Below, in pieces: positions 13,182-26,449 of a stretch of 50,662 nt of DNA (within the stretch, counting starts at the first letter, position 1; each line of letters opens with the position of its first letter). Location of the stretch: positions 919,717 through 970,378 of the forward strand of contig NZ_KK037166.1 of NCBI RefSeq assembly GCF_000568255.1. The letters are read 5' to 3'. The notes under the pieces are model-generated. The model made no database searches and was not told the origin of the DNA. It was given only the letters and a program-made list of their open reading frames with translations. A program made the position numbers and the translations under genes. The DNA is from Kutzneria sp. 744 (GTDB lineage Bacteria; Actinomycetota; Actinomycetes; Mycobacteriales; Pseudonocardiaceae).

Positions 13182-13895
13182 TCAGGCGCGCTCGGCCAGC
13201 GCCTTCAGGACCGCCTCCGCCGCCTCGCCGCCCGAGGCCGGGTTCTGGCCTGTGATCAGGTTGCCGTCGACCACCACGTAGGACCCCCAGGCCGGGCCCG
13301 CCGAGTAGTCGGCGCCGGCGCCGCGCAGGCGCTCTTCCAGCAGCCACGGGGCGTTGGCGGCCAGGCCCACCTGCGTCTCCTCGTCGTCGGTGAACGCCGT
13401 CAGCTTGCGGCCCTTGAACAGCCAGCTGCCGTCGGGCGCTCCGGCCGCGAAGAACGAGGCCGGGCCGTGGCACAGCGAGGCCACCACCTTGGTCTGGTCG
13501 GGCAGCAGCGCCGCCAGCACGCGGGCCACGTCCGCGTTGACCGCCAGGTCCTGCATCGGGCCGTGGCCGCCGGGGATCAGCACCCCGTCGAAGTCGGCCG
13601 GGTCCATGTCCTCCAGCCTCGCCGGCTCCTGCAGCAGGTCGCGGTGAGCCTCCACGTAGGCCCGCATCTCGTCCGCGTGCGCCTGGTTGCCGTTGTTGGC
13701 CTCCGCGCTCAGGCTCAGCTCGTCGGCCCGGGCCGGCCGGCCGCCCGGCGTCGCGATGGTCAGCTGCACGCCGGCAGCGGACAGGATCCGGTGCGGCACA
13801 GCGAACTCCTCCGCCCAGAAGCCGGTGGGCCGCTGGCTGCCGTCCTTCTGGCTCCAGACCGTCGCGGACGTGAGGATCACCAGCAGCTTGCTCAT
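13182..13895 (-). CDS. DJ-1/PfpI family protein (Hsp31-like, type 1 glutamine amidotransferase fold)
   Basis: 237 residues with the DJ-1/PfpI fold. The nucleophile-elbow Cys is in VVASLCHGPASF (near residue 130), and GVLIPGGHGPMQDL marks the oxyanion loop. The N-terminal block TGFWAEEFAVPHRIL with its conserved Glu is typical of the Hsp31/glyoxalase III-like branch, whose members convert methylglyoxal to lactate or protect proteins from glycation. ATG 13895 has a good GGGAG 8 nt upstream; a longer open frame to 13982 has no such signal. It is the first gene of the run DJ-1, MBL, SanA-like. Confidence 0.88.
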   Translation of the reverse strand: MSKLLVILTSATVWSQKDGSQRPTGFWAEEFAVPHRILSAAGVQLTIATPGGRPARADELSLSAEANNGNQAHADEMRAYVEAHRDLLQEPARLEDMDPADFDGVLIPGGHGPMQDLAVNADVARVLAALLPDQTKVVASLCHGPASFFAAGAPDGSWLFKGRKLTAFTDDEETQVGLAANAPWLLEERLRGAGADYSAGPAWGSYVVVDGNLITGQNPASGGEAAEAVLKALAERA

Positions 13896-14066
13896 GTTCT
13901 TGTCTCCCTGAACTGTCCCCGCGCTGGACCGCGCGGCTCGTGACCCGTCATACGCTACTCGCACACGGTCATCACATAGCAAGCCTGTTGGCCCTCTTGT
14001 GACATTCGTAACCAGTTAGCTCATGACACCCACGTCCACTAGACTCGGCTCCAGGAGGTGTTGGCC

Positions 14067-14651
14067 GTGAAGGTGACTTTGGGTCCGCCGCGCGCCGGGG
14101 CGGAGTGCGTCAGCTCGGATCTGCTGATGGCGTTCGTCAATTCGCGCCCGCACCACAAGCAGCCCACCGAGCTGCTGGCCGACGGTCCCGCCGTCGCGGC
14201 CTGGTTTGCGGCCGCCGGCGCCGGCGAGTCGTCCGACGCCACCGACGCCGATGCCGCCACCGCCCGTGAACTTCGCGACGCGCTGCTCAGCATCCTTCGT
14301 GCTCACGTCGGCTGCGACGAGGGCCTGTCGATGGTGTCCGAGGCCGAGGCCCACCTCCAGCGGGCCGCGCTCCGTTTTCCCGTGACCACCGTCGTCACCG
14401 CCGACGGCTGCGAGCTGCACCCCACCGGCACCGGCGTCGACCGCTCTTTCGCCTATCTCCTCAGCGCCGTCGCCGACCTCGCCTCCCGTGGCGCCTGGGC
14501 CCGCGTCAAGGTGTGCAAGAACGACACCTGCTACACCGCCTTCTTCGACAAGACCCGCAACTCCTCCGCGCTGTACTGCAGCACGTCGTGCAGCGGCCAG
14601 ATGGCCACCCGCGCCTACCGCGAGCGCAAGAAGGAGTGCTCGATCCGCTGA
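14067..14651 (+). CDS. CGNR/ABATE-type zinc-finger regulator
   Basis: 194 residues. The N-terminal ABATE domain (about 10-130; DLLMAFVNSRPH) is a putative ligand-binding fold of stress-induced regulators. The C-terminal zinc finger has Cys pairs VCKNDTC and YCSTSC followed by basic RAYRERKK, as expected for DNA binding. The usual CGNR tetrad is replaced by CSGQ, a variant. Start GTG 14067 is preferred because GGAGG ends 8 nt before it; an in-frame GTG at 14058 overlaps that site. The gene is divergent from the DJ-1 operon 171 bp away and may regulate it; the intergenic gap shows no clear operator. Confidence 0.82.
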   Translation: MKVTLGPPRAGAECVSSDLLMAFVNSRPHHKQPTELLADGPAVAAWFAAAGAGESSDATDADAATARELRDALLSILRAHVGCDEGLSMVSEAEAHLQRAALRFPVTTVVTADGCELHPTGTGVDRSFAYLLSAVADLASRGAWARVKVCKNDTCYTAFFDKTRNSSALYCSTSCSGQMATRAYRERKKECSIR

Positions 14652-14954
14652 CCGCGCCGTCCAGTTCTCGTCAGCCGGACGCCCGCTCCTCGACCGGGCG
14701 TGGCCCGTCGACCAGCTCGTCCGCGACGCCGAGCCCTGGCGACTGACTCCCACGCGGTGCAGTTCTCGTCGGGCGCGGCCAGCTTCTGGTGGCCGCCCTG
14801 GACGAGTGGCGTTAGCGGCAAAGCCCGTGCTCAGCTGCGCGATGGGGTGCCCAAAGGCGCGGTACGGCTCCGGGCGGCGCCGGCGACGGCGTCGGTGCCG
14901 GATGCTCGGGGGAATGCGGACTCCACGACGAGCGGCGGTCGGCGGTCACGGCCG
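14652..14954. other. Intergenic stretch with a short direct repeat
   Basis: No gene is supported here. An imperfect direct repeat contains CAGTTCTCGTC twice, near 14663 and near 14759, each in a similar context (TCCAGTTCTCGTC and TGCAGTTCTCGTC). Short open frames on both strands have no start signals or recognisable protein. The stretch may be decayed coding sequence or the promoter region of the IclR gene. Confidence 0.35.
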
Positions 14955-15653
14955 ATGAGCGGGGCACACGCGGACGACGGGGGACGCGGGGTGCTGGACG
15001 GCGCGTTCCGGTTGCTGGACCGACTGTGCGAGGTCGGCGACGCCGGCCTCACGGCCTTGGCGGCAGGCAGCGGACTGCCGAAGGCGACGGCGCATCGGCT
15101 GCTGGATCAGCTGGTGCGGCTGGGGGCGGTCGAACGGGCCGACACCAGGTACCGCGTCGGTCCGAGGTTGTTCCAGCTGGGCCAGGCGTGGGAGCCGCAT
15201 CCCGGACTACGCAGCACGGCGACGCAGCCCCTTCACGAGCTGGCCCGGGCGACCGGGGCCTCGGTGGGTCTGTGCGTGCTGCGGGCCGGCCGGGCCCTGG
15301 TGGTGTCGGGCGTGCCGGGCGAGATCGACGAGCTGGTGCCCCTGCGTGCGGGCGCCACCTGGGGCTTCCCGACCGCGGTCGGCAAGGCGCTGGCCGCGGG
15401 CTTGGCCCCGCTTGCCCTGGAATCCGCGTCCTGGCAACGAGAAGCGGCCCTGATCAGGGACCGGGGAATCGCCCTCGACCACGAGCAGGCGGTGCCCGGC
15501 GTCGCCTGCGCCGCCGTGCCGATACGAGCGCGGGACGGCCGTTCGGTGGCGGCGGTGTGCGCCATGATCGAGGCCTCCCCGCGACTGCCCCGCATCGCCG
15601 AGGTGCTCCGCCGGGTCGGCCGCGCCATCAGCGCCGGCCTCGAACCCGGCTGA
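14955..15653 (+). CDS. IclR-family transcriptional regulator
   Basis: 232 residues: an N-terminal winged helix (about 15-75; FRLLDRLCEVGDAGLTALA and LPKATAHRLLDQLVRLG) and a C-terminal IclR effector-binding domain (about 95-230; ATGASVGLCVLRAGRALVV, GFPTAVGKALAAGL, and VACAAVPIRARDG with the conserved Cys). IclR proteins repress or activate catabolic or secondary-metabolite genes in response to a small molecule. ATG 14955 was chosen from the domain limit; there is no good ribosome binding site, and the open frame runs upstream without homology. It converges on the first radical SAM gene of the RiPP-like cluster, so it could regulate that cluster; this is only a position-based guess. Confidence 0.85.
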   Translation: MSGAHADDGGRGVLDGAFRLLDRLCEVGDAGLTALAAGSGLPKATAHRLLDQLVRLGAVERADTRYRVGPRLFQLGQAWEPHPGLRSTATQPLHELARATGASVGLCVLRAGRALVVSGVPGEIDELVPLRAGATWGFPTAVGKALAAGLAPLALESASWQREAALIRDRGIALDHEQAVPGVACAAVPIRARDGRSVAAVCAMIEASPRLPRIAEVLRRVGRAISAGLEPG

Positions 15654-15704
15654 CGGTCGGCCAGCCTGACGATCAGGCCCGCTGACAGTCAGCCCCGCAG
15701 AGGA

Positions 15705-16703
15705 TCAGGCCGGGCGGCGCGCGATGCGGCGCAGGTCGTCGGGCGAACCGAAACGCTGGTCGATGCGTCGGGCGGCGACGGCCCACTCGGCCATGGTCCG
15801 CACGGGGCCCAGGGTCTCGACGACGAAGGGATCGTGCCAACGGGCCAGCGCCCGCTCCCACAGCACGGACGGCGGGTCGGTGCGGATGTTGCCGACGGTG
15901 CCCTCGTAGATGGACATGGCTCGCACCTGGCCGTCGGGCTCGATCTGCACGGAACCGTAGGTCGACCAGTCCCTGGCCCGATCGGGATGCATCATCAGCT
16001 GGCGGTTGTCGGTCGTCTGCACGTCCACGCCGTCGCCGGCCAACGAGCGCAGCCGGGCCACGCGGTCGTCGCTGGTCAGCTCCCGCACCTGGTCGTCGGT
16101 CAGCAGCTCGGCGTCGAACCCGGCACGGCTGGCCGCGCCGCTGGGCACGACGGGGCCGAAGTAGGCGAACCCCAGCCGCGGGAAGCGGGGCGCGACGGTC
16201 GCGCAGATGTCGTCGAGCTGGTGGAAGTTGCTCCGCATCACCGAGCAGTCGAGGCCGAAGTTGAACGGCACGCGCGAGGCGACCTCGTCCAGGATGGCGA
16301 GGGAGCGCAGCGCGCGGTCGAAGGCGCCGCGCCGGCCACGGACCTTGTCGTGGACCTCGGCGGTCGCGCCGTCCACGCTGACGCCCAGCAGGGACACCGT
16401 GGACGCCAGCTGCTCGGCCAGCTCGGGCCGCATCGACCAGCCGCCGGTGTACACCACGACCTGGACGCCGGCTTGCGACAGCCGCCGGGCGATGTCGGCG
16501 ATCACGGGAGTCAGCAGCGGCTCTCCGCCCGACAGCACGACCGACTCCGGCCCGGCCGCCGCGATCTTGTCGGCGACCAGCAGCATCGTGTCCGGATCGA
16601 GTTGCCGCGTCGGCCGCCGACCCGATTCCGAATAGCAGTGCACGCAGAGCAGCGGGCACGCATAGGTCGTGTCCCAGACGATGATTCGCGGACCGGATTC
16701 CAT
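15705..16703 (-). CDS. Radical SAM protein with cysteine-free C-terminal domain
   Basis: 332 residues. The radical SAM core has CPLLCVHC (Cys 16, 20, 23; CxxxCxxC binds the 4Fe-4S cluster), the GGEPLL motif that contacts SAM (about residue 60) and VSVDGATAEVHD. The C-terminal domain keeps the SPASM-like pattern EPDGQVRAMSIYEGTVGNI, but the Cys expected before YEGTVGNI is absent and no Cys remains after about residue 185, so it should not hold auxiliary clusters. ATG 16703 was chosen from the start of homology. It is transcribed away from the precursor peptide gene at 16873, sharing a 169-bp region that holds a 21-bp perfect palindrome. A role in RiPP maturation is inferred from this position. 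Confidence 0.85.
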   Translation of the reverse strand: MESGPRIIVWDTTYACPLLCVHCYSESGRRPTRQLDPDTMLLVADKIAAAGPESVVLSGGEPLLTPVIADIARRLSQAGVQVVVYTGGWSMRPELAEQLASTVSLLGVSVDGATAEVHDKVRGRRGAFDRALRSLAILDEVASRVPFNFGLDCSVMRSNFHQLDDICATVAPRFPRLGFAYFGPVVPSGAASRAGFDAELLTDDQVRELTSDDRVARLRSLAGDGVDVQTTDNRQLMMHPDRARDWSTYGSVQIEPDGQVRAMSIYEGTVGNIRTDPPSVLWERALARWHDPFVVETLGPVRTMAEWAVAARRIDQRFGSPDDLRRIARRPA

Positions 16704-16783
16704 GGGCACAACCACCACCGTCTGCCGCGGGCGAATACGCCGACCGGGCCAGCATGCCCCGTTCGGGGCCAATTCGGGAAGTC

Positions 16784-16804
16784 CCGGTCCGCTGAGCGGA
16801 CCGG
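16784..16804. promoter_or_regulatory. 21-bp perfect palindrome between divergent RiPP-cluster genes
   Basis: CCGGTCCGCT (16784-16793) and AGCGGACCGG (16795-16804) are exact inverted copies around one central base. The site lies 80 bp from the start of the minus-strand radical SAM gene and 68 bp from the precursor start, so one bound regulator could control both directions. It could also be a hairpin in the 5' leader of either mRNA. Confidence 0.5.
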
Positions 16805-16872
16805 CCATTGCCTGCCCCGCGCTGGCCCGGCGATTCTTGAGCGGTTGGTCGATCCCGAAAGGAGGAGTCCAC

Positions 16873-16992
16873 GTGGAGAACGAACTCGACCTCACCGAGG
16901 TCGCGACCGTCGATCCGCCGCGCGAGCCGGCGATCCAGATCGAATTCTTCGATTTCCAGACGCAGGTCGCCTGGCCGTGCCTGCCGCTGTGA
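16873..16992 (+). CDS. Candidate RiPP precursor peptide, 39 residues
   Basis: A small gene missed by length cut-offs. GTG 16873 stands 8 nt after AAAGGAGG, the best ribosome binding site in this part of the window. The peptide has an acidic N-terminal half (MENELDLTEVATVD), a Pro-Arg-Glu-Pro turn and a C-terminal half rich in aromatic residues (IQIEFFDFQ, then TQVAWPCLPL to the stop). The single Cys lies four residues from the end. This split, acidic leader and short aromatic/Cys core, is typical of ribosomal peptides modified by radical SAM enzymes. It is followed 102 bp later by a SPASM radical SAM gene, then by a B12 radical SAM methyltransferase of the RiPP-maturation group. I do not recognise the precursor family. 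There is no second copy nearby. Confidence 0.75.
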   Translation: MENELDLTEVATVDPPREPAIQIEFFDFQTQVAWPCLPL

Positions 16993-17094
16993 CACGGTGA
17001 GAACCCGCCGGGTGAGGGCGGGTTGTCGGCTCTCGCCCGGCGGCGCACACGTATTCGAGGGAAATTCGAGCCAGCGGAAAATGGGGGTCCTGGC

Positions 17095-18291
17095 ATGCGT
17101 TTCATTCGCGGCGCCGCCGGCTACTGGGCGGTCGGCAGCACCTTCGTCGCGCGCGTCCCGGAGCAGCACTTCGACGCGCAGGGACGGCCGACGCCGGCGG
17201 TGCGGGAACTGCTGGCGGCCCGGGACGCCGCGCCGGCCACCGACTCGGACCTGTACGGCCTGACCGTGCTCGTGACGACCCGCTGCAATCTGGCCTGCCC
17301 GTACTGCTTTCAGAACACCGAACTCCCGCAGGCCCCCGAGGGCGCGATTCCGCTGCGGATCCCGGGCGCCACCGTCGATGACCGCAAGGTCGCCGACATC
17401 CTCGCCTTCACCCGCGACCGCATGGCCGAGCTGAACAAGACCGCGGTCAAGCTGATGCTGTTCGGCGGTGAGCCGACGATGTTTCCCGGCTATTGCCTGA
17501 AACTGCTGGAAGGATGCCGGCCGCTCGGGCTCACCGGCGCGTCGATGATCTCCAACGGAACGCTGTTCGACGCGGCCGGCGCGATCGAGATGGAACGCGC
17601 CGGCCTGGAATGGGTGCAGATCAGCCTGGACGGCGACGCGGCCGACCACGACCGCTCCCGGATCACCCTCGGCGGCCGCGGCACGTTCGCCACCATTCTG
17701 CGCAACGTCGAGGCGGCCTCCGCGCGGACCGCGCTGAAATGGCGGCTGCGGGTCAACATCAGCCGCGAGTCCATCGACGGCGTGCAGACGCTCATCGACC
17801 GACTCGGCGACCGGCTCGACACTGGCCGGTTCATGCTGAAACTGGCCCTGATCCAGGACGTCGGCATCGGCTACCAGAAATCCGTGCGGCATTCGGCGGA
17901 ACTGGCGAAACGGGTGGGCGAGCTGTACCTGCACGCGATGGACGCCGGTTTCACGGTCGCCCCGCCGAGGGCCGCCCCCTGCCTGTTCTGCGACGCGGTC
18001 GGCGGCACCACCGGCGCGGTGGTCAATTCCGACGGAACCCTGTACAGCTGCTGCCATTCCGCCGGCCAGGACGGATACGACGTCGGCACGGTCACGGCCG
18101 GCTACCACCGCGAGCCGGTCGTGCGGGAGCGGTGGGTGATGTGCGGGTACGGGGCCGAGCCGAACACCGACAAGGCGGCCGAGCGGCTGCACGCCGACAT
18201 CGTCGACGCCATCGTGCTCGACCGGCTGCACGCCACCGGATCGCTGGCCGCCGCGACGGCATCGCAGTTCGCCCTGATGGACCCGGCCTGA
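17095..18291 (+). CDS. Radical SAM/SPASM peptide-modifying enzyme
   Basis: 398 residues. An N-terminal extension of about 55 residues (VGSTFVARVPEQHF, possibly part of peptide recognition) precedes the radical SAM core with CNLACPYC (Cys 64, 68, 71), the SAM-contact motif LFGGEPTMFPG and SLDGDAADHDRSR. The C-terminal region has the many Cys of a SPASM domain: CLFC, NSDGTLYSCCHSAG and WVMCGYG, enough for auxiliary Fe-S clusters. SPASM enzymes in RiPP clusters make C-S, C-O or C-C crosslinks on a precursor peptide; which bond is made here is unknown. ATG 17095 was chosen at the start of homology; the Shine-Dalgarno is weak (GGGGGT 12 nt upstream). It follows the precursor and precedes the B12 enzyme by 22 bp. 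Confidence 0.9.
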   Translation: MRFIRGAAGYWAVGSTFVARVPEQHFDAQGRPTPAVRELLAARDAAPATDSDLYGLTVLVTTRCNLACPYCFQNTELPQAPEGAIPLRIPGATVDDRKVADILAFTRDRMAELNKTAVKLMLFGGEPTMFPGYCLKLLEGCRPLGLTGASMISNGTLFDAAGAIEMERAGLEWVQISLDGDAADHDRSRITLGGRGTFATILRNVEAASARTALKWRLRVNISRESIDGVQTLIDRLGDRLDTGRFMLKLALIQDVGIGYQKSVRHSAELAKRVGELYLHAMDAGFTVAPPRAAPCLFCDAVGGTTGAVVNSDGTLYSCCHSAGQDGYDVGTVTAGYHREPVVRERWVMCGYGAEPNTDKAAERLHADIVDAIVLDRLHATGSLAAATASQFALMDPA

Positions 18292-18313
18292 GCCGCGAAT
18301 CCGGAGACGTGTC

Positions 18314-20221
18314 ATGCGCATAGTGCTGGTCAACATGCCTTGGGGCTCGGTCGAAATCCCGTCGCTGGCGCTCGGCATCCTCAGCCGCAGCCTGCGCGCC
18401 CGGTTCCCGGACGCCGAGGTCGAGGTGCTGCACGCGAACATCGACTACGTGGACTGGTTGAGCCGGGAATCGCCGGTCACGCTGCCGGACTACGAGTTGT
18501 TCTCGCTGCACTCGTTCGCCACCGGCGGCGGCGACTTCGTCTTCTCGTCGGCCCTGTACGACGATCCCGACTGGCGGTGGCCGCAGCTCGTCGACGCGGT
18601 CGGCGGCCGCTCCGAGCGGGACCTGGCGCTGCTGCGGCGGCTGCACCGGTCGGCCCCGGCGTTCGTCGCCGAGCTGGCCGAGCGCATCGTGGCCGGCCGA
18701 CCGGATCTGGTCGGCTTCACCGCGACCTTCCAGCAGACCACGGCCGCCCTGTCCGCGGCCAAGCACATCAAACGGCTGGCCCCGGAGATCATGACCATCA
18801 TGGGCGGCGCCAGCTGCGACGGTCCGCAGGGCACCGCGCTGCACCGCAACTTCGACTTCCTGGACTTCGTGCAGCGCGGCGAGGGCGAGGTGGCGTTCCC
18901 CCAACTGGTCGCCGAACTGGCCGGCGACCGGGACCTCGCCGCCGTGTCCGGGCTCTGCTGGCGCGACGGCGACCGTTCGGTGGCCAACGCGATGAGCACA
19001 AAACCATTGCCGCCCAACGAGATCGTCGCGCCGGACTACGACGGCTACTTCGAGCGGCTGGCGTCGTCGGCGGCTCGCACGTGGACGGATCCCAAGCTGG
19101 TCATGGAAAGCTCGCGCGGCTGTTGGTGGGGCGAGAAGCACCACTGCACGTTCTGCGGCCTCAACGGCTCGTTCATGGAGTTCCGCAGCAAGAGCCCGCG
19201 GCGGTTCTTCGACGAGATCGTCGAGCTGACCGGACGCCACCGGGTGCTCGACATCTTCATGGTGGACAACATCCTGGACATGAACTACCTGACCTCGCTG
19301 CTGCCCGAGCTGGCCGCCGCCGACCACGACTTCCGGTTCTTCTGCGAGATCAAGGCCAATCTCCGCCGCGAGCAGGTGCAGCTGCTGGCCGACGCCGGCA
19401 TCGTCAACGTGCAGGCGGGCATCGAGAACCTCAGCAGCCACGTGCTCGGCATCATGGACAAGGGCATCAGCGGCTGCCAGAACGTGCGGATGCTGCGGGA
19501 CGCCGAGTCCTGCGGCGTCTGGGTCGAATGGAACTACCTGTACGGGTTTCCCGGCGAGACCGTCGCCGACTACGCCTCGGTCGTCGCGCAGATGCCGGCC
19601 CTGCACCACCTGCCGCCGCCGCACTCGGTGGGGCGGTTCGCGGTCGAGCGGTTCAGCCCGTACTTCAACCGCCCCGAGCTCGGTTTCCCTGACCTGGCGC
19701 CGGATCCGCAGTACGCGATGATGTACGACCTGCCCGAGTCCGAGTTGTTCGAGCTGGCCTACCTGTTCGCGGTGCCGCCGCGCGGTGTCGACGAGGACGT
19801 GGCGGCCGAGCTGGCGGCAGCCGTGGACCGCTGGGCCGCCGCGTACCAGAGCAGCCGCCTGACCAGCGCCGACCGGGGTGACCACATCGAACTCGTCAGC
19901 GAGCGCTCGGCTTTCGACTGGCGGACCTTGACCGTCGACGACCCCTTGGAGCTGACCGCGTTGCGACTGCTCGACCGCCCGCACACGTCGGCCGCGTTGA
20001 CCCGCAAGCTCGCCGACCGGTTCCCCGGCCTCGGCGATGGCGCGGTTTCGGCTCTGTTGAGCCATTGGCGGGAACTCGGGCTGCTGTACTCCGACGGCGG
20101 CCAGCACGTGTCGACCGCGCCGTTGGCCAACAACCAGGCGCTGACCCGGGTTTCGCGTGGTGCCCGGACCACCTGGACGCCGTCGGCGCCGCTGGTCGGC
20201 AGTGAGGGGCGGCTGCCGTGA
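18314..20221 (+). CDS. RiPP maturation B12-dependent radical SAM C-methyltransferase
   Basis: 635 residues: an N-terminal B12-binding Rossmann domain (RIVLVNMPWG; VGFTATFQQTTAAL; IMGGASCDG), a radical SAM core and a 200-residue C-terminal extension. The cluster motif is the spaced form CWWGEKHHCTFC (Cys 270, 278, 281; Cx7CxxC) inside SSRGCWWGEKHHCTFCGLNG, which I know as the hallmark of the RiPP maturation radical SAM protein 1 group (TIGR03975). Those enzymes are thought to methylate unactivated carbon in a precursor peptide using cobalamin and SAM. The last third (from about 545; LTALRLLDRPHTSAALTRKL) looks like a winged helix that might bind the peptide leader. Its TGA overlaps the GTG of the next gene, so both are translated together. 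Confidence 0.92.
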   Translation: MRIVLVNMPWGSVEIPSLALGILSRSLRARFPDAEVEVLHANIDYVDWLSRESPVTLPDYELFSLHSFATGGGDFVFSSALYDDPDWRWPQLVDAVGGRSERDLALLRRLHRSAPAFVAELAERIVAGRPDLVGFTATFQQTTAALSAAKHIKRLAPEIMTIMGGASCDGPQGTALHRNFDFLDFVQRGEGEVAFPQLVAELAGDRDLAAVSGLCWRDGDRSVANAMSTKPLPPNEIVAPDYDGYFERLASSAARTWTDPKLVMESSRGCWWGEKHHCTFCGLNGSFMEFRSKSPRRFFDEIVELTGRHRVLDIFMVDNILDMNYLTSLLPELAAADHDFRFFCEIKANLRREQVQLLADAGIVNVQAGIENLSSHVLGIMDKGISGCQNVRMLRDAESCGVWVEWNYLYGFPGETVADYASVVAQMPALHHLPPPHSVGRFAVERFSPYFNRPELGFPDLAPDPQYAMMYDLPESELFELAYLFAVPPRGVDEDVAAELAAAVDRWAAAYQSSRLTSADRGDHIELVSERSAFDWRTLTVDDPLELTALRLLDRPHTSAALTRKLADRFPGLGDGAVSALLSHWRELGLLYSDGGQHVSTAPLANNQALTRVSRGARTTWTPSAPLVGSEGRLP

Positions 20222-20817
20222 CCGAAGTGATCCTGTGGCGGGACTACGGCCGGCCGGAAACGGTGCTGGGCACCAGGTCCGGGCCCTCCCTCGCCACCGT
20301 GGCCGAGTTCTACGCCGAGGGCGCGCGGCACGCCGTCCTGCCCTCGCTGGTCGATCTGGCCGCCGACGCGGAGGCCTCCACCGTGCAGTCCCTCACGTTG
20401 GTACGGGAGCTGACCGCGTGGGGCATCGCCGTGGACTGGCGCCTGCGGCTGCCCGGCGACGCCGAGATGTGGCCCGCCCTCGGTCACCTCCATCCGCCGG
20501 CCGAAGTCGTCGACCACCCCTCGATCCGTGACCAGTGGCGGTCCTCCTACCACTTCTGCAAGTGCGTCGACCGCCACGGCCCCGGCTTCGTCGAGATCCG
20601 CGACTTCCGCTCCGGCCGCCTACGCAAGCTCATCATCTCCGACCCCCGCTACCGCCAGGCCATCGAGGCCCTCCGCGACGGTCCCCCGCTCGCCTCCCTG
20701 CCCGCCCCCATAGCCCGCGACCTCATCTCCGCCGGCCTCGTCGGCCTGGTCGGCGCCCGCGCCTGGTGGCTCCCCTACCGCGTCCGTCGCTGGCCCCTCG
20801 CCTCCGACATCATCTGA
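20218..20817 (+). CDS. DUF5825-like protein, partner of the B12 radical SAM enzyme
   Basis: 199 residues, start GTG 20218 overlapping the upstream stop (GTGA). It has no signal peptide or membrane helix. Blocks are VILWRDYGRPETVLGT, VQSLTLVRELTAWGIAVDW (in a helical section), HPSIRDQWRSSYHFCKCVDR with two Cys, and VEIRDFRSGRLRKLIISD near the middle, ending in RYRQAIEALRDG and an Ala/Leu-rich helix. I recall proteins of this kind (DUF5825) beside TIGR03975 enzymes in actinomycetes, where their role is unknown. The late section could mimic a peptide-binding winged helix, and the tight coupling suggests it works with the methyltransferase. Confidence 0.75.
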   Translation: MTEVILWRDYGRPETVLGTRSGPSLATVAEFYAEGARHAVLPSLVDLAADAEASTVQSLTLVRELTAWGIAVDWRLRLPGDAEMWPALGHLHPPAEVVDHPSIRDQWRSSYHFCKCVDRHGPGFVEIRDFRSGRLRKLIISDPRYRQAIEALRDGPPLASLPAPIARDLISAGLVGLVGARAWWLPYRVRRWPLASDII

Positions 20818-20924
20818 CCCCCACCCTCCTGCCGGCCTGAAAGCAGGCGCCCACCCTCCAGGCGTGGTGTTGTCCTGCCCCGAGGTCAGAAGATTAGATT
20901 TCACTTATCACTGAAGTCATAGCG

Positions 20925-21692
20925 CTATATACTGCTACCTCGAAGCAGGGCCGCGGTCAGACCGCTTTCCAGCACGAAGAAGATGAAGCAGATGAAGCGC
21001 TTGTGGCCCTTGAGCTGGTCGGCATGGAGCTCGTAGGCCTCGGGGGCGGGATAGGGCTCGGCGATGTGGGCGGTGCGGAAGCCGGCGGCGGCGAAGGCGT
21101 CGCTCATGGCGCTGAGGGGGCGGTGCCAGTAGGTGAGCACGGCCGGACGGCCGGCGAAGGTGTACTCGTCGGACCACTGTGTGGTGTCGAAGTAGTTGGT
21201 GTCGGGGAACGCCAGCTTGTAGATCATGGGGTGGTTGACGACGAGGATGAGGCGGCCGCCGGGCTTGAGGACGCGGCGGAGCTCGGCCAGCGGGGTGGTC
21301 CAGTCCTCGAAGTACTGCAGCACGAGGGCGGAGACGACGTCGTCGAACTCGGCGTCGGCGTACGGCAGGGGCTGGGTGATGTCGGCGACCCGGATGTCGG
21401 CGTCGGGTCCGAGCTTCTCACGGCCGATGCGCACCATCTCGGCGCTGGAGTCGAAGCCGCTCACGACGGCGCCGCGGTCGCGCAGGTCCGAGAAGATGGG
21501 ACCGGCGCCGCAGCCGGCGTCGAGAATGCGGCGGCCGGCCACGTCACCGGCCAGTTCGACGACGGCGGGCCGGGTGTAGTAGGCGTTGAACAGGCTGGTC
21601 TCGTTCTCGGCCACGTACGCCTCGGCGAAGCTGTCGTAGTCGTTCAGCACGGCTTCGGCCGAACTCTCGGGAATCGCGGACATGCGGCCCAT
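20925..21692 (-). CDS. Class I SAM-dependent methyltransferase
   Basis: 255 residues with the Rossmann methyltransferase fold: motif I ILDAGCGAGPIFSDL, the acidic end of strand 2 in VVSGFDSSAEMV, motif II region VADITQPLPYADAEFDDV and motif III LRRVLKPGGRLILVV. It resembles the Methyltransf_11 group, which methylates small molecules; acceptor unknown. ATG 21692 is used, and ATG 21683 (MSAIPES) is an equally good alternative. It points toward the DUF5825-like gene, with 107 bp between the two stops, so it is not in that operon, though it could still tailor the peptide product. Confidence 0.85.
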   Translation of the reverse strand: MGRMSAIPESSAEAVLNDYDSFAEAYVAENETSLFNAYYTRPAVVELAGDVAGRRILDAGCGAGPIFSDLRDRGAVVSGFDSSAEMVRIGREKLGPDADIRVADITQPLPYADAEFDDVVSALVLQYFEDWTTPLAELRRVLKPGGRLILVVNHPMIYKLAFPDTNYFDTTQWSDEYTFAGRPAVLTYWHRPLSAMSDAFAAAGFRTAHIAEPYPAPEAYELHADQLKGHKRFICFIFFVLESGLTAALLRGSSI

Positions 21693-21777
21693 AGTGCCCA
21701 CGAAACAGCCGGCCCGCCAGGAGTTGATCATGCTCCCTGTCGGGTGGCGCCGAATCGACACTGGTAGGCGGTGGAAC

Positions 21778-21963
21778 TCAGCGACACTTCCTCGGGGAAG
21801 GCCGGGTCAGGTCGCGGGCGCTCAGACTGACGGAGCCGGCCACCAGGCACGTGTCCGGCGCGGGCTCGGTGGAAGCGGCGCCGTCGACGGCGACCGCCTG
21901 TCCTGATCGGTGGGTTTCGTGGCCGGAGAACACCGGCGCGGGTCCGACCGCGGTCGGCACCAT
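21778..21963 (-). CDS. Possible small protein in intergenic region
   Basis: A 61-residue open frame starting at ATG 21963 with strongly GC-biased third codon positions, as in real genes here. It has no recognisable domain, no clear ribosome binding site and no known relatives that I can name; one stretch reads TCLVAGSVSLSARDL. It covers most of the 312-bp gap between the methyltransferase and the HD gene. It could be a fragment of a former gene or chance. The rest of the gap shows no clear promoter. Confidence 0.25.
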   Translation of the reverse strand: MVPTAVGPAPVFSGHETHRSGQAVAVDGAASTEPAPDTCLVAGSVSLSARDLTRPSPRKCR

Positions 21964-22004
21964 GGAAGAAGTCCGGTCACCATCAGCCGAAAGCGCGGAA
22001 CGTC

Positions 22005-22643
22005 ATGTCAGAGGTCATCGCGGGTGTGGAGGTTCCGGAGACGGCGGCCGTCGCCGAGGCCACCCGTCTCGTGCAGGAGACGACCAGCCCGCTCGTCTAC
22101 CACCACTCGCGCCGGGTGTTCCTGTTCGGCCAGATCCAGGCCCGACGCCTCGGTGTGACGCCGGATCCGGAACTGCTCTACCTGGCCGCGATGTTCCACG
22201 ACACCGGCCTCGCCACGCCCTTTTCCGAGGTGGAGCAGCGGTTCGAGGTCGACGGGGCCGACCACGGGCGTAAGTTCCTGCTGGAGCACGGCTTCTCGGC
22301 CGCGGCGGCCGACACCGTGTGGACGGCGATCGCGCTGCACACGACGCCGGGAATTCCGCACCGAATGGGCCCGGAGATCTCGTCGCTGTATTTCGGCGTG
22401 GTGACCGACGTGATCGGATTCGGCCTCGACGAGCTGGATATCGCGCAGGTAGAGGAGGTGCTGGCCGGCCATCCGAGGGGCGATTTCAAGAAGGAGTTCC
22501 TCCGCGCCTATTTCGACGGGTTCAAGCACCGACCCGACACGACCAACGGCACCGTGAACGCCGACGTGCTGGCCCATTTCATCCCCGGTTTCCGGCAGAC
22601 CACCTCGGTCGAGCGCATTCTCGGCTCGGCCTGGCCGAGCTGA
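22005..22643 (+). CDS. HD-domain phosphohydrolase-like (cyanamide hydratase-like) protein
   Basis: 212 residues with the HD metal-binding pattern: first His in VYHHSRRVFLFG, the HD pair in LAAMFHDTGLATPF and later His in DGADHGRKFLLEHG and IALHTTPGIPHRMG. The order and spacing match the DDI2/cyanamide hydratase-like branch of the HD superfamily. Those proteins hydrate nitriles such as cyanamide or hydrolyse phosphates; no substrate can be assigned. Its stop is 2 bp before the MFS start, so the HD, MFS and oxidoreductase genes form one operon. Confidence 0.85.
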   Translation: MSEVIAGVEVPETAAVAEATRLVQETTSPLVYHHSRRVFLFGQIQARRLGVTPDPELLYLAAMFHDTGLATPFSEVEQRFEVDGADHGRKFLLEHGFSAAAADTVWTAIALHTTPGIPHRMGPEISSLYFGVVTDVIGFGLDELDIAQVEEVLAGHPRGDFKKEFLRAYFDGFKHRPDTTNGTVNADVLAHFIPGFRQTTSVERILGSAWPS

Positions 22644-22645
22644 CG

Positions 22646-23869
22646 ATGCCCGCTTTCGGCCGGGCCGCCTCGTTCGGCCTGATCGTGGTCACCACTGTGC
22701 TGCTGATGGCCGCCACCAGCGCGCCCTCGCCGATCTACCCGCTGTACCTGCAGCGCTGGGGCTTCTCGGTGACGGTCCTGACCGTGGTCTTCGCGGTGTA
22801 TGTGGCCGGGCTGGCCGCCGCGCTGCTGACGGTCGGCTCGCTGAGCGACCATCTCGGCCGCCGGCCGGTGCTGGTGGCGTCGCTGCTGGTGGCCGCGGCC
22901 GGCACGGCGGTCTTCTGGACGGCCGACGGGGTGGTCTCGCTGGTGGTCGCCCGCATCGTCCAGGGCATAGCGACCGGGGCCGCGACGGGCGCACTCACCG
23001 CCGTGCTGGTCGAGTTCTCCCCCGAGGGCCGCCCGCACCGGGGGCCGACGATGACCGCGGTGGGCACGAGTTTCGGGCTGGCCGTCGGCGGCGGCGTCAC
23101 GGGTCTGCTCGTCCAGGCCGGCCCCCGCCCGGACGGTGTGGTGTTCCCCGCGCTCACGGTGGCGTTCGCGATCCTCGCCGTGTTGGTCGCCGCCGTCCCG
23201 GAGACGGCCGGACGACGCCCCGGCGCGCTGGCCGCGCTGCGCCCGAGAGTCCACGTTCCCCCGGCGACGCGGCGGGAATTCCTCGCCGCCGTGCCGGCCA
23301 TCGTCGCTGGCTGGTCCATCACCGGCCTGTTCCTGGCCCTTGCGCCTTCGCTCGTGCACGACGTGTTGCACGTGGGGTTCGGCGCCGCCGGCGGTCTCAG
23401 CATCACAGTCCTGTTCCTCGCCAACAGCGTGGGCGGCCTGTGGGCGGCACGACAGCCGGCTGGGCGGGCCACGCTGCTGGGGTCGGTGTTCCTGACCGTC
23501 GGCGCGGTGGGCCTGGCCGCCGCGGTGTTCTTCGCCTCGCCGCCGGTGTTCATCGGCGGTTCGATCGTGGCCGGTCTGGGCGTCGGCCTGACATTCAACG
23601 GGACCCTGCGCGGCATCAGCGGGGCCACCGACGCGGCGTCGCGGTCGGCGGTGTTCTCCGCCGCCTACCTCGTCAGCTACGCGGCGCTGGGCCTGCCGTC
23701 GGTCGCCGCCGGGCTGGCCACACCTTGGTGGGGCCTGGCGGCCACCAGCTATCTGTACACGGCGTTTGTCGGGACACTGTCCCTGTTCGCGACGCTGCAC
23801 GCCGCCCGCCGGTCCACACGGACCGCCGGGCCCTCGGGAAAGGCATTGGCATGCAAGCAATCACCGTGA
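22646..23869 (+). CDS. MFS transporter, drug-efflux type
   Basis: 407 residues with about twelve membrane helices. The loop between helices 2 and 3 carries the MFS signature GSLSDHLGRRPVL, and helix 1 ends in SAPSPIYPLYLQRWGF. It resembles the proton-driven efflux pumps of the major facilitator superfamily. The open frame extends upstream to 22319, but that section is a shadow of the HD gene; ATG 22646 begins the hydrophobic protein. It overlaps the next gene by 19 bp. It could export the product of the neighbouring RiPP cluster, though no evidence beyond proximity supports this. Confidence 0.88.
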   Translation: MPAFGRAASFGLIVVTTVLLMAATSAPSPIYPLYLQRWGFSVTVLTVVFAVYVAGLAAALLTVGSLSDHLGRRPVLVASLLVAAAGTAVFWTADGVVSLVVARIVQGIATGAATGALTAVLVEFSPEGRPHRGPTMTAVGTSFGLAVGGGVTGLLVQAGPRPDGVVFPALTVAFAILAVLVAAVPETAGRRPGALAALRPRVHVPPATRREFLAAVPAIVAGWSITGLFLALAPSLVHDVLHVGFGAAGGLSITVLFLANSVGGLWAARQPAGRATLLGSVFLTVGAVGLAAAVFFASPPVFIGGSIVAGLGVGLTFNGTLRGISGATDAASRSAVFSAAYLVSYAALGLPSVAAGLATPWWGLAATSYLYTAFVGTLSLFATLHAARRSTRTAGPSGKALACKQSP

Positions 23870-24762
23870 CCGACCAGGCCGCCGGCATCGACGGACTGAC
23901 GCTCACCGACCGGCCCTACCCGCATGCCGCCGAGAACGACGTCATCGTGCGGGTCCACGCCGCCGGCTTCACCCCGGGCGAGCTGGACTGGCCCACCAGC
24001 TGGACCGACCGGGCCGGCCGCGACCGCACGCCCAGCATTCCCGGGCACGAGCTGTCCGGCGTGGTGGCCGAACTCGGTTACGGCACCACGGGTCTGACCG
24101 TCGGCCAGCGGGTGTTCGGTCTGGCCGACTGGGCCCGCGACGGCTCCCTGGCCGAGTACACGGCCGTCGAGGCGCGCAACCTCGCGCCGCTGGCCGCCGA
24201 CATCGACCACACCGTCGCCGCGGCGCTGCCCATCTCGGGATTGACGGCGTGGCAAGGACTTTTTGTCCACGGCGGTCTCACCACCGGCCAGACGGTGCTG
24301 ATCCACGGCGCGGCCGGCGGCGTGGGATCCATCGCCGTGCAGCTGGCCCGCGAGGTCGGCGCCCGGGTGATCGGCACCGGCCGGGCCGCCGACCGTGATC
24401 TGGTTCTCGGCCTTGGCGCACAGGCGTTTGTGGACCTGGACGCCGAACCGTTGAGCGGCGAGGTCGACGTGGTGCTCGACGTCATCGGCGGCTCGGTGCT
24501 GGAGCGGTCGGCCGCGTTGGTCCGCCCCGGCGGGACGCTGGTCACCATCCCCGCGCCGCCGACGGTGCAGCCCAAGGACGGTCGGGCGGTCTTCTTCGTC
24601 GTCGAACCCGACCGCGCGCAGCTGGCCGACCTGGCTCAGCGCGTGCGGGACGGCCGGTTGAAGCCCCTCGTCGGGGCCGTGCGCCCGCTGGCCGAGACGG
24701 CCGACGCCTTCGCCCGTCGAAACCGCACCGCCGGCAAGACCATCATCCAGGTGACCGCCTGA
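23851..24762 (+). CDS. NADPH-dependent quinone oxidoreductase-like MDR enzyme
   Basis: 303 residues of the zinc-free medium-chain reductase group: GroES-like domain (VIVRVHAAGFTPGELDWP; IPGHELSGVVAELG), then a nucleotide-binding domain with IHGAAGGVGSIAVQLA. The AGGVG turn fits NADPH binding. These enzymes reduce quinones or enones. ATG 23851 overlaps the end of the MFS gene by 19 bp, so it is the third gene of the HD-MFS-reductase operon. The gap of 112 bp after it holds no obvious terminator. Substrate unknown. Confidence 0.88.
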   Translation: MQAITVTDQAAGIDGLTLTDRPYPHAAENDVIVRVHAAGFTPGELDWPTSWTDRAGRDRTPSIPGHELSGVVAELGYGTTGLTVGQRVFGLADWARDGSLAEYTAVEARNLAPLAADIDHTVAAALPISGLTAWQGLFVHGGLTTGQTVLIHGAAGGVGSIAVQLAREVGARVIGTGRAADRDLVLGLGAQAFVDLDAEPLSGEVDVVLDVIGGSVLERSAALVRPGGTLVTIPAPPTVQPKDGRAVFFVVEPDRAQLADLAQRVRDGRLKPLVGAVRPLAETADAFARRNRTAGKTIIQVTA

Positions 24763-24874
24763 TTTTCCACCCCCGACGGCTCGACCGGGCACCGTGACTA
24801 TTGCCCGATAACGAACAACCTGGGTGATCCGCATGGCGTCAGATGGCTGCACACGACCATGAGGAGACCTCCCA

Positions 24875-26449
24875 GTGCCTTTACGAACAAGACCGCGCCT
24901 GCGGGCCGCCGCCCTCGCCGCCGCGCTGGCCTGTGGTCTCGGCCTGCTGCCGGCGACAGCCGACGCCACGGCCGACGGCTCCGACGTGCTGGCCGACCGC
25001 GCGCCGACGCCCGCGCTGACCTGGGCCGACTGCGCCGACGGCTTCCAGTGCGCCACGGCCGGGGTGCCGCTGGACTACGCCAACCCCTACGGCACCAAGA
25101 TCGACCTGGCGCTGATCAAGCTGCCGGCCAGCGACCCCGCCCACCGGATCGGCACGCTGTTCGTCAACTTCGGCGGGCCCGGACCGTCCGGTGTGGACAG
25201 ACTGCGGCAGCGGGCCAAGTGGCAGTGGCTGTTCTCCGACGAGCTGCGCGCCCGGTTCGACCTGGTGTCGTGGGATCCGCGGGCGGTCAGCCACAGCACG
25301 GCGGTGCGGTGCTTTTCCACCAACGCCGAGCAGGAGCAGTACTTCGCCTCGTTCCCGGAGATGCCGGGCGACGCGGCCGGCGAGCCCGCCTACTTCCACG
25401 CCTCCAAGGACCTCGCCGACCGCTGCCAGCAACAGGCGGGGAACCTGTTGCCGTACATGAACAGCGTCAACACCGCGCGGGACATCGACCTGCTGCGGCG
25501 GGCCGTCGGCGACGCCAAGATCACCTATCACGGCATCTCCTACGGCACCCACATCGGCGCCATCTACGCCAACCTGTTCCCCAACCGGATCAGGGCGCTC
25601 GTCATGGACGGCACCATGGACTTCCAGGGCAGCGCCACCGGTCACGGCAACGCCGGGACGACCCTGCCCGTGGACACCCGGCAGGACGTGGCCGGTGGCA
25701 TCGCAGAGACCTTCGAGTCCTTCCTCACTCAGTGCGCCGCGGCCGGCCCCAACTGCGCCTTCTCCGGCGGCGACGTGCACGCCAAGTGGCAGACGCTGGC
25801 CGAACGGGCCCGCCAGCACCCGATCACCGTCACCAATCCCGACGGCACCGCCAGCACCTTCAGCTACTCGGCGGTGATCAACCTGGCCGGGGATCTCGCC
25901 AAGCCGGAGGCGTGGAAGGACAACGCCGCCCAGCTGGAGCGCCTCTACGAGGCCAGCGCTGTCACGGCGAAGGCCTTGTCCCCCAAGGGAGAGCCGTACC
26001 TCGGCAACTCCACCGAGGCGTTCAACGCCATCCAGTGCGGCGACAGCACCGTGCCCACCGACGAATCGACCTACAGCGCCCTGGCCACCAGCGAGGACGC
26101 CCGGGTGCCGTACTTCGGCCGCATCGGCGTGTTCGACATGATGTCCTGCGCCTACTGGCCGCACCGGGCCGTGCAGCCCTACCGCGGCCCGTGGAACCGC
26201 CCGACCTCCGCCCCCATCCTGGTGATCAACAGCCGCTTCGACCCGTCCACGCCGCTCAAGGGGGCCAAGGACGGCATCGCCGAGCTGGCCAAGGCACGGC
26301 TGCTGGTGGTCGAGGGCTCGGGCCACAGCACCATGTACGTGCACAGCACCTGCGCCGAGAAGGCCAAGCGCGCTTACCTGATCTCCGGTGTGCTGCCGCC
26401 CGTCGGCGCGACCTGCGGCATCGACCAGAAGCCGTTCGACCCGGCGTAG
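24875..26449 (+). CDS. Secreted S33-type peptidase (tripeptidyl aminopeptidase-like)
   Basis: 524 residues. A signal peptide (RTRPRLRAAALAAALAC, cut near ADA at about residue 30) directs export. The alpha/beta-hydrolase fold carries the oxyanion HGxP-like stretch FVNFGGPGPSGV, nucleophile GISYGTHIG, catalytic Asp in VINSRFDPSTPL and His in EGSGHSTMY; the C-terminal TAP-like domain contains the last two. The family includes Streptomyces tripeptidyl aminopeptidase and SlpD-type peptidases, which remove short N-terminal peptides outside the cell. GTG 24875 follows GAGGAG with an 8-nt space; upstream ATG 24859 is out of frame. It may help mature or use peptides; a link to the RiPP cluster is only possible. 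A strong hairpin follows. Confidence 0.9.
   Translation: MPLRTRPRLRAAALAAALACGLGLLPATADATADGSDVLADRAPTPALTWADCADGFQCATAGVPLDYANPYGTKIDLALIKLPASDPAHRIGTLFVNFGGPGPSGVDRLRQRAKWQWLFSDELRARFDLVSWDPRAVSHSTAVRCFSTNAEQEQYFASFPEMPGDAAGEPAYFHASKDLADRCQQQAGNLLPYMNSVNTARDIDLLRRAVGDAKITYHGISYGTHIGAIYANLFPNRIRALVMDGTMDFQGSATGHGNAGTTLPVDTRQDVAGGIAETFESFLTQCAAAGPNCAFSGGDVHAKWQTLAERARQHPITVTNPDGTASTFSYSAVINLAGDLAKPEAWKDNAAQLERLYEASAVTAKALSPKGEPYLGNSTEAFNAIQCGDSTVPTDESTYSALATSEDARVPYFGRIGVFDMMSCAYWPHRAVQPYRGPWNRPTSAPILVINSRFDPSTPLKGAKDGIAELAKARLLVVEGSGHSTMYVHSTCAEKAKRAYLISGVLPPVGATCGIDQKPFDPA

What the first reader, a model, noticed from the sequence alone, without database searches (positions are those of the whole stretch)
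15705..20817. Candidate undescribed RiPP cluster with three radical SAM enzymes
A 39-residue precursor gene with the best Shine-Dalgarno in the region is flanked by a SPASM radical SAM gene, a B12 radical SAM C-methyltransferase (TIGR03975-like, Cx7CxxC motif), a coupled DUF5825-like gene and a divergent third radical SAM gene. Crosslinking plus C-methylation of one short peptide would give a complex product. I cannot name a characterised peptide with this combination.
Basis: partly seen in the sequence, partly recalled or inferred. Interest (0 to 1): 0.88.

Follow-up and report, generated by a model that had tools for sequence, protein, structure and literature searches.

The report
Hybrid peptide cluster with methylation enzymes
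An actinobacterium carries a small gene cluster that probably makes a short peptide which one radical enzyme closes into a ring and another decorates with methyl groups, a mix of two enzyme modules that elsewhere were found on different peptides.

Summary
A 39-codon ORF (16873-16992, GTG start) lies between a divergent radical SAM gene and a row of SPASM-type radical SAM, TIGR03975 B12-radical SAM and DUF5825 genes. It is more than a chance ORF: the only close SPASM relative found (64% identity, Amycolatopsis xylanica) has a short peptide gene directly upstream whose core aligns without gaps (7 of 15 identical, shuffle p 5.5e-4 and 5e-5), codon position 2 being best conserved (14/15 against 7/15 at position 3). 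A hairpin follows the peptide in five of five loci folded.

TIGR03975+DUF5825 is the clavusporin-type C-methylation pair. In 24 of 30 relatives it sits just downstream of its own 'NDP'-type precursor. Here the SPASM gene holds that place, and no known NDP-type precursor was found in the genome. The two halves were not found together elsewhere (0 of 42 SPASM loci, 0 of 30 methylase loci read).

Best reading: a hybrid RiPP cluster in which a clavusporin-type methylation pair was recruited to a thioether-type precursor. All chemistry is inferred; co-function rests on gene order and a missing precursor; the third radical SAM gene's role is unproven. New variant of a known kind.

The parts
15705..16703 (-). 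RS3: third radical SAM gene, divergent from the peptide; CxxxCxxC and no C-terminal cluster cysteines; role unproven
   Evidence: PF04055 E 1.5e-20; alignment of 17 family members; best NCBIfam score far below cut-off
16704..16872 (.). 169-bp divergent intergenic region, presumably holding the promoters (inference; no sigma-70 consensus found)
   Evidence: read
16858..16865 (+). Shine-Dalgarno AAAGGAGG of the peptide gene
   Evidence: 1 found in the window, 0.70 expected
16873..16992 (+). precursor peptide gene, 39 aa, GTG start, one Cys (Cys36)
   Evidence: core shared with A. xylanica L041; single copy in the genome at E<=1
16936..16980 (+). conserved core, residues 22-36 QIEFFDFQTQVAWPC, likely site of the SPASM enzyme's action
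   Evidence: 7 of 15 identical to A. xylanica EIEVFEFESQEACSC, p 5.5e-4 / 5e-5; codon positions 10/14/7 of 15
17005..17043 (+). hairpin between peptide and SPASM gene (15-bp stem)
   Evidence: z -3.79, 0 of 200 shuffles as stable; hairpins also in the 4 relatives folded
17095..18291 (+). SPASM/twitch-type radical SAM enzyme, proposed thioether maturase
   Evidence: nearest solved relative CteB by profile (E 1.1e-18) and fold (E 7.8e-15)
18314..20221 (+). TIGR03975 B12-radical SAM C-methyltransferase
   Evidence: 589 bits against 281.85; 56-59% identical to 8 clavusporin-type homologues, L133-L140
20218..20817 (+). DUF5825, partner of the methyltransferase
   Evidence: PF19142 E 2e-65; beside a TIGR03975-type homologue in 30 of 31 loci read

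Best explanation
A hybrid RiPP cluster. The 39-aa peptide is made in excess of its enzymes (strong ribosome site, then a hairpin). The SPASM-type radical SAM enzyme, a relative of the thioether maturase CteB, joins Cys36 to a residue of the IEFFDFQTQVA stretch (-2 Da). The TIGR03975 B12-radical SAM enzyme with its DUF5825 partner adds methyl groups at carbon (+14 Da each), most likely on aliphatic residues such as Ile21 and Ile23, and works on this same peptide because its usual NDP-type precursor is missing. The leader is then cut, perhaps after Pro19 by a prolyl oligopeptidase encoded elsewhere, and the product exported. RS3 may add a third change. Shown: gene order, families, conservation of the peptide with its SPASM enzyme, the SPASM gene in the place where relatives keep the NDP precursor. 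Inferred: every chemical step, the target residues, the cleavage site, RS3's part.
For: Peptide conserved beside the 64% SPASM relative, under amino-acid-level constraint; hairpin in 5 of 5 loci folded. SPASM enzyme nearest to CteB by fold and by profile; short Cys-bearing peptides upstream of many 40% relatives (no Cys filter, with a Cys filter). Methylase far above its family cut-off and, with DUF5825, of the pair reported to C-methylate clavusporins (PMC12257519 passages). NDP-type precursor 135-439 nt upstream of the methylase in 24 of 30 relatives and in S. clavuligerus pSCL4; here that place holds the SPASM gene, and nothing NDP-like was found among 1360 small ORFs of the window (best E 0.36) or in the genome (best E 0.23; five methylase genomes 8e-8 to 2e-16). 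SPASM to methylase 22 nt, methylase/DUF5825 overlap 4 nt.
Against: No second genome with both halves: 0 of 42 distinct SPASM loci have the methylase or DUF5825 and 0 of 30 methylase loci have the SPASM gene, so co-function has no comparative support. The peptide carries no significant NDP-type signature (p about 0.4 or more against five NDP-type peptides; profiles do not see it). A profile of 16 SPASM-type peptides does not recognise it either. Recall of the NDP profile for unseen types is partial, so an unusual precursor elsewhere cannot be excluded. No protease in the cluster was identified. The window methylase's place in the tree is weakly supported (83/77).
Confidence: 0.58

Rival explanations
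1. Two systems side by side: peptide and SPASM enzyme make one product, while the TIGR03975/DUF5825 pair serves a different, unrecognised precursor elsewhere in the genome or is a stranded remnant.
For: The two halves were never found together in the loci read; the peptide has no significant NDP signature; NDP profile recall for new types is partial; the window methylase is a lone long branch.
Against: SPASM, methylase and DUF5825 lie in one tight row on one strand (22-nt gap, 4-nt overlap); the methylase and DUF5825 genes are full length and keep their motifs; no NDP-type precursor found in the genome.
Confidence: 0.27
2. RS3 is an unrelated neighbour; the cluster is only peptide, SPASM enzyme, methylase and DUF5825, with two radical SAM enzymes acting.
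For: RS3 relatives lie beside varied genes; in 12 of 15 loci no lanthipeptide synthetase was seen; no RS3-family hit beside any of 30 methylase loci; RS3/SPASM co-occurrence in the family is not significant (2 genomes with both, Fisher p 0.065). This rival is compatible with the best explanation.
Against: RS3 is the divergent neighbour of the peptide; 3 of 15 relative loci hold a class III lanthipeptide synthetase, so the family is found near RiPP genes; one of these (L213) also holds a TIGR03975-like hit.
Confidence: 0.45
3. The SPASM enzyme makes a carbon-carbon or other link (or an epimerisation) instead of a thioether, so Cys36 is a bystander.
For: No tested link exists for this subfamily; none of the 25 NCBIfam families shown for it (of 61) reaches its cut-off; TigE, anSME and PqqE, whose reactions differ, are also among the structural or profile matches.
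Against: CteB, a thioether enzyme, is the best match by both methods; Cys is the residue shared by the 16 peptides used for the profile (partly circular, see Tried and rejected).
Confidence: 0.3
4. The 39-codon ORF is not translated and the resemblance to A. xylanica is chance.
For: The Shine-Dalgarno alone is within chance; no protein family matches the peptide.
Against: Conserved core, codon pattern, place and hairpin shared with A. xylanica.
Confidence: 0.05

Closest known systems
Clavusporin-type C-methylated RiPPs (Zhang et al. 2025, Nat Chem Biol; paper not held; known to me only through passages of PMC12257519 and PMC12951456). The S. clavuligerus pSCL4 locus (L237) is probably of this kind; that it is the clavusporin locus itself is my inference
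   Same: TIGR03975 methylase (56.5% identical to S. clavuligerus) followed by DUF5825
   Different: No NDP-type precursor, no S9 peptidase or MFS gene directly beside it (one MFS gene lies 1.8 kb beyond DUF5825); an extra SPASM-type enzyme and a different peptide
CteB and other sactipeptide/ranthipeptide thioether maturases
   Same: Full-length fold and sequence relation of the SPASM-type enzyme; short Cys-bearing peptide
   Different: 16% identity only; no named NCBIfam maturase family reached; a short 39-aa peptide with one Cys; methylase pair attached
Short-peptide/SPASM clusters of actinomycetes (E-V-V-A-H ... C peptides; no name found), e.g. A. xylanica L041
   Same: SPASM enzyme (64% to A. 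xylanica, 37-44% to 32 others), upstream short peptide, intergenic hairpin
   Different: None of the 42 distinct loci read has the methylase or DUF5825
Biphenomycin-like YHxYxY clusters (PMC12257519, passages)
   Same: Published case of a B12-rSAM/DUF5825 pair next to another crosslinking system
   Different: There an MNIO and a second B12-rSAM enzyme do the other steps; this genome's only MNIO match lies 7 Mb away
Polytheonamide-type proteusins (recalled, no call)
   Same: More than one radical SAM enzyme, among them B12-dependent C-methylases, on one peptide
   Different: Long nitrile-hydratase-like leader, epimerase, no DUF5825; not tested here

Membership tests
Clavusporin-type C-methylated RiPP | TIGR03975 C-methyltransferase over its cut-off | tested here: met
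   589 of 281.85 bits
Clavusporin-type C-methylated RiPP | DUF5825 partner gene adjacent | tested here: met
   E 2e-65, 4-nt overlap
Clavusporin-type C-methylated RiPP | NDP-type precursor just upstream of the methylase | tested here: not met
   24 of 30 relatives have it; none in the window or genome
Clavusporin-type C-methylated RiPP | Prolyl oligopeptidase gene in the cluster | tested here: not met
   35 S9 matches in the genome, none inside the window
Clavusporin-type C-methylated RiPP | C-methylated product | not testable with these tools
   needs mass spectrometry
Sactipeptide/ranthipeptide (thioether RiPP) | Radical SAM enzyme of the SPASM/twitch type with auxiliary-cluster cysteines | tested here: met
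   4 invariant Cys beyond the radical SAM motif in 26 of 26; CteB nearest; Pfam SPASM itself below cut-off
Sactipeptide/ranthipeptide (thioether RiPP) | Match to a curated maturase family | tested here: not met
   best TIGR04463, 94.6 of 525 bits
Sactipeptide/ranthipeptide (thioether RiPP) | Thioether between Cys and another residue | not testable with these tools
   needs mass spectrometry or NMR
Short-peptide/SPASM clusters of actinomycetes | Peptide recognisable beside the enzyme in relatives | tested here: inconclusive
   clear for A. xylanica, weak for L066 (p 0.04/0.02), not for the other SPASM-type peptides tried or the 16-peptide profile
Mycofactocin maturase (RS3) | TIGR03962 over its cut-off | tested here: not met
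   95.3 of 265 bits
Viperin (SPASM gene and RS3; PADLOC pVip hits) | NF038283 over its cut-off | tested here: not met
   48.8 and 51.7 of 180 bits; pVip hits are taken as general radical SAM similarity
Biphenomycin-like RiPP | MNIO (PF05114) in the cluster | tested here: not met
   only match in the genome at 8.03 Mb, window at 0.92-0.97 Mb

The most novel reading that the evidence does not exclude
A clavusporin-type methylase/DUF5825 pair has lost its NDP-type precursor and been re-targeted to a thioether-type precursor, so that one 39-aa peptide is both ring-closed through Cys36 and C-methylated, with a third, auxiliary-cluster-poor radical SAM enzyme adding a further change: a C-methylated thioether RiPP not described in the papers searched, and a natural test of what the methylase/DUF5825 pair recognises.
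Probability: 0.48. Interest if true: 0.68.

Novelty: new variant of a known kind. Interest (0 to 1): 0.5.

Why it matters
If true, the TIGR03975/DUF5825 C-methylation pair is a portable module not tied to the NDP leader motif. That bears directly on leader recognition by DUF5825, a family with a confident model but no solved relative found by sequence or fold. It also offers a four- or five-gene system that combines two radical reactions on one short peptide, useful for stiff, protease-resistant peptides. The wider group of short acidic Cys peptides with a CteB-like enzyme, 42 distinct loci read here, gave no relevant paper in the searches.

Tried and rejected
Tried and dropped: (1) The peptide as a sequence chimera of an NDP-type leader and a SPASM-type core: PREP-AIQI against RKP-SVGI looks tempting, but shuffles give p 0.40-0.93 for the five NDP-type peptides tried and profiles do not see it; kept only as a possible cut site after Pro. 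(2) Profile of 16 SPASM-type peptides: does not recognise the window peptide (2624 of 5000 shuffles reach its score). (3) RS3 as counterpart of the second radical SAM gene found in 12 of 41 SPASM-family stretches (11 distinct loci): the C-terminal cysteine clusters seen in those are absent from RS3. (4) RS3/SPASM co-occurrence: not significant, p 0.065. (5) Viperin/defence reading. (6) Rfam, 13500-22500: no match. (7) Fold of DUF5825 in the PDB: nothing at E<=0.001. (8) SPASM gene on plasmids: no match. (9) Sigma-70 promoter in the divergent region: none, of little meaning in actinobacteria. (10) PMC9062424 (abstract, section 4, passages): radical SAM RiPP survey, no matching cluster in the parts seen. 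PMC13352647: one reference title only, DUF6895 as a lasso-peptide epimerase.

Limits: the peptide list required a Cys and a motif, so 'all have Cys' is circular there; one search had no Cys filter. Hairpin stretches were chosen by eye. NDP controls were mostly in the profile; leaving out a whole type, only 4 of 16 peptides scored E<0.01. The rescan stopped before L142, L143, L189 and L191, so 24 of 30 is a lower bound. Of 31 further family genomes with DUF5825 matches, stretches from 18 were read; most weaker matches were not.

Full report
What is there. On the + strand: a 39-codon ORF (16873-16992), a SPASM/twitch-type radical SAM gene (17095-18291), a TIGR03975 B12-radical SAM methyltransferase (18314-20221) and a DUF5825 gene (20218-20817). 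On the - strand: a further radical SAM gene, RS3 (16703-15705). SPASM to methylase is a 22-nt gap; methylase and DUF5825 overlap by 4 nt. The genome is one contig of 11.65 Mb. None of the 6 other genomes of the genus searched has the SPASM gene at E<=1e-20.

Is the peptide real? A. xylanica (L041) is 64% identical, the next 32 are 37-44%, and the remaining 47 are distant radical SAM proteins. In A. xylanica a 23-25 aa ORF lies just upstream of the SPASM gene; its first possible start overlaps the stop of an upstream MFS-like ORF (by eye). Its EIEVFEFESQEACSC aligns without gaps with window residues 22-36, 7 of 15 identical; Smith-Waterman 40; p 5.5e-4 with the window shuffled and 5e-5 with the other shuffled, 20,000 shuffles each. 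Of the ten other peptides compared in that call, one (L066) gave p 0.04/0.02 and nine gave 0.27 or more. Codon positions 1, 2 and 3 are identical in 10, 14 and 7 of 15, as expected for a conserved peptide. Both peptides begin MENE. The peptide occurs once in the genome at E<=1. A hairpin lies between peptide and enzyme in the five loci folded (z -2.5 to -5.7; 0, 0, 1, 3 and 0 of 200 shuffles as stable). The Shine-Dalgarno alone is not evidence.

The wider SPASM family. Loci at about 40% identity have short acidic peptides upstream with an E-[VI]-[VI]-A-H or I-E-V-[LF] stretch and a Cys some 7-14 residues on, in some loci as repeats; in many of the Streptomyces loci no such peptide was found by these scans. 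Among 41 stretches clustered (39 distinct loci), recurring neighbours are SARP regulators, S8 and S9 proteases, MFS transporters, DUF6895 and, in 12 stretches (11 distinct), a second radical SAM gene. A profile of 16 such peptides does not recognise the window peptide, so its kinship rests on A. xylanica. The AlphaFold model (pLDDT 88.6) and a profile search both put CteB first among solved structures. Of 61 NCBIfam families matched, the 25 shown include none over its cut-off.

The methylase and its partner. Counting the window's own genome, 12 of 394 class-level and 33 of 390 family-level genomes encode a DUF5825 relative at E<=1e-5. I read 31 such loci: the 11 of the class search, and 20 stretches from 18 of the 31 further family genomes. 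30 of 31 have a TIGR03975-type homologue beside DUF5825; none of these 30 has a SPASM-gene or RS3 hit at E<=1e-4 in the stretch. 24 of the 30 have a short peptide with an [NG]-[DNS]-P motif and a V/I-rich core 135-439 nt upstream of the methylase match. Three others have different short basic ORFs, and none was seen for L141, L143 (contig start) and L188. S. clavuligerus pSCL4 has methylase, DUF5825, an annotated MFS gene and an alpha/beta hydrolase, with an unannotated NDP-type peptide between. PMC12257519 (passages) says that a homologous B12-rSAM/DUF5825 pair C-methylates clavusporins. PMC12951456 (passage) says that a prolyl oligopeptidase, MpcP, removes their leader. The clavusporin paper is not held. 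In a tree of 31 methylases the window's is a lone branch of length 0.57 beside the NDP-type clades, weakly placed (83/77).

Why the methylase may work on this peptide. The usual NDP place is taken by the SPASM gene. Among 1360 small ORFs of the window (nested starts counted apart) the best NDP-profile E is 0.36; in the genome it is 0.23, against 8e-8 to 2e-16 in five methylase-bearing genomes and 0.63 in A. xylanica, which is not among the DUF5825 matches. Cautions: those five are mostly in the profile, and recall for unseen types is partial. Against it: no significant NDP signature in the peptide, and 42 distinct SPASM loci without methylase or DUF5825 in the stretch read (L037, L228, L231 and L234 duplicate other loci and are not counted). 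The combination was therefore seen once, and co-function cannot be shown by conservation.

RS3. A clear subfamily (16 other hits at E<1e-95, the next at 1.6e-24) occurs in 13 of 390 family genomes, the window's included; one genome of the same genus has two. In 17 aligned members the CxxxCxxC motif is invariant, Cys167 is present in 16, and no C-terminal cysteine set is conserved. Three of 15 relative loci, from two genomes, hold a class III lanthipeptide synthetase; one of them (L213) also has a TIGR03975-like hit at its edge. Others lie beside ordinary genes such as uvrA or helicases. Its part here is a guess. A single conserved Cys recalls radical SAM epimerases; that is recalled knowledge, not a result.

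Mechanism by strength of support. Shown: gene order, families, conserved peptide and hairpin, SPASM gene in the NDP place. Likely: the SPASM enzyme acts on the Cys-bearing core. Probable: the methylase pair acts on the same peptide. Guess: thioether at Cys36, methyls on Ile21/Ile23, a cut after Pro19 by one of the genome's S9 peptidases (35 matches, none in the window), RS3 as a third maturase.

Novelty. Each half is a known kind. The combination did not turn up in the papers searched (open-access texts only). I file it as a new variant of a known kind, interest 0.5.

Noticed in passing
L042, L044, L054, L061, L067, L070, L072 (upstream of the SPASM match): A family of short or repeat-bearing acidic peptides (E-V-V-A-H ... 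W/P-C-G-V) beside CteB-like enzymes, SARP regulators, S8/S9 proteases and MFS genes, across several actinomycete genera; no relevant paper in the searches.
   Followed up: partly
window 18314-20221, residues 487-570 of the methylase: The C-terminal part of the methylase matches DUF5825 weakly (19.7 bits, cut-off 25, E 7.8e-4), hinting that the partner and the enzyme's own C-terminal part share an origin.
   Followed up: no
L141 5228-9680: The methylase match is in two pieces (residues 1-481, then 476-602 about 1.9 kb further on) before DUF5825, as if its C-terminal part were a separate gene.
   Followed up: no
L039 (same genome, 10.106-10.126 Mb): A second TIGR03975-scoring protein of this genome (507 bits) and another B12-radical SAM gene lie beside NRPS, AMP-binding, acyl-CoA dehydrogenase and thioesterase genes, so not an obvious RiPP setting.
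   Followed up: partly
L213 (G787): Two RS3 relatives, an ABC transporter, a class III lanthipeptide synthetase, a SARP regulator and a TIGR03975-like hit within 20 kb: a possible lanthipeptide cluster with several radical SAM enzymes.
   Followed up: partly
window 20925-26449: Beyond DUF5825: a class I methyltransferase on the - strand, an HD-domain protein (22005-22643), an MFS transporter (22640-23869) and a TAP-like hydrolase (24875-26449); possible export or trimming partners, not tied to the cluster by any test.
   Followed up: partly
L042 9206-10207 and relatives: DUF6895 genes directly follow the SPASM gene in several relatives; a 2026 paper title seen in a reference list calls DUF6895 a lasso-peptide epimerase family.
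   Followed up: no
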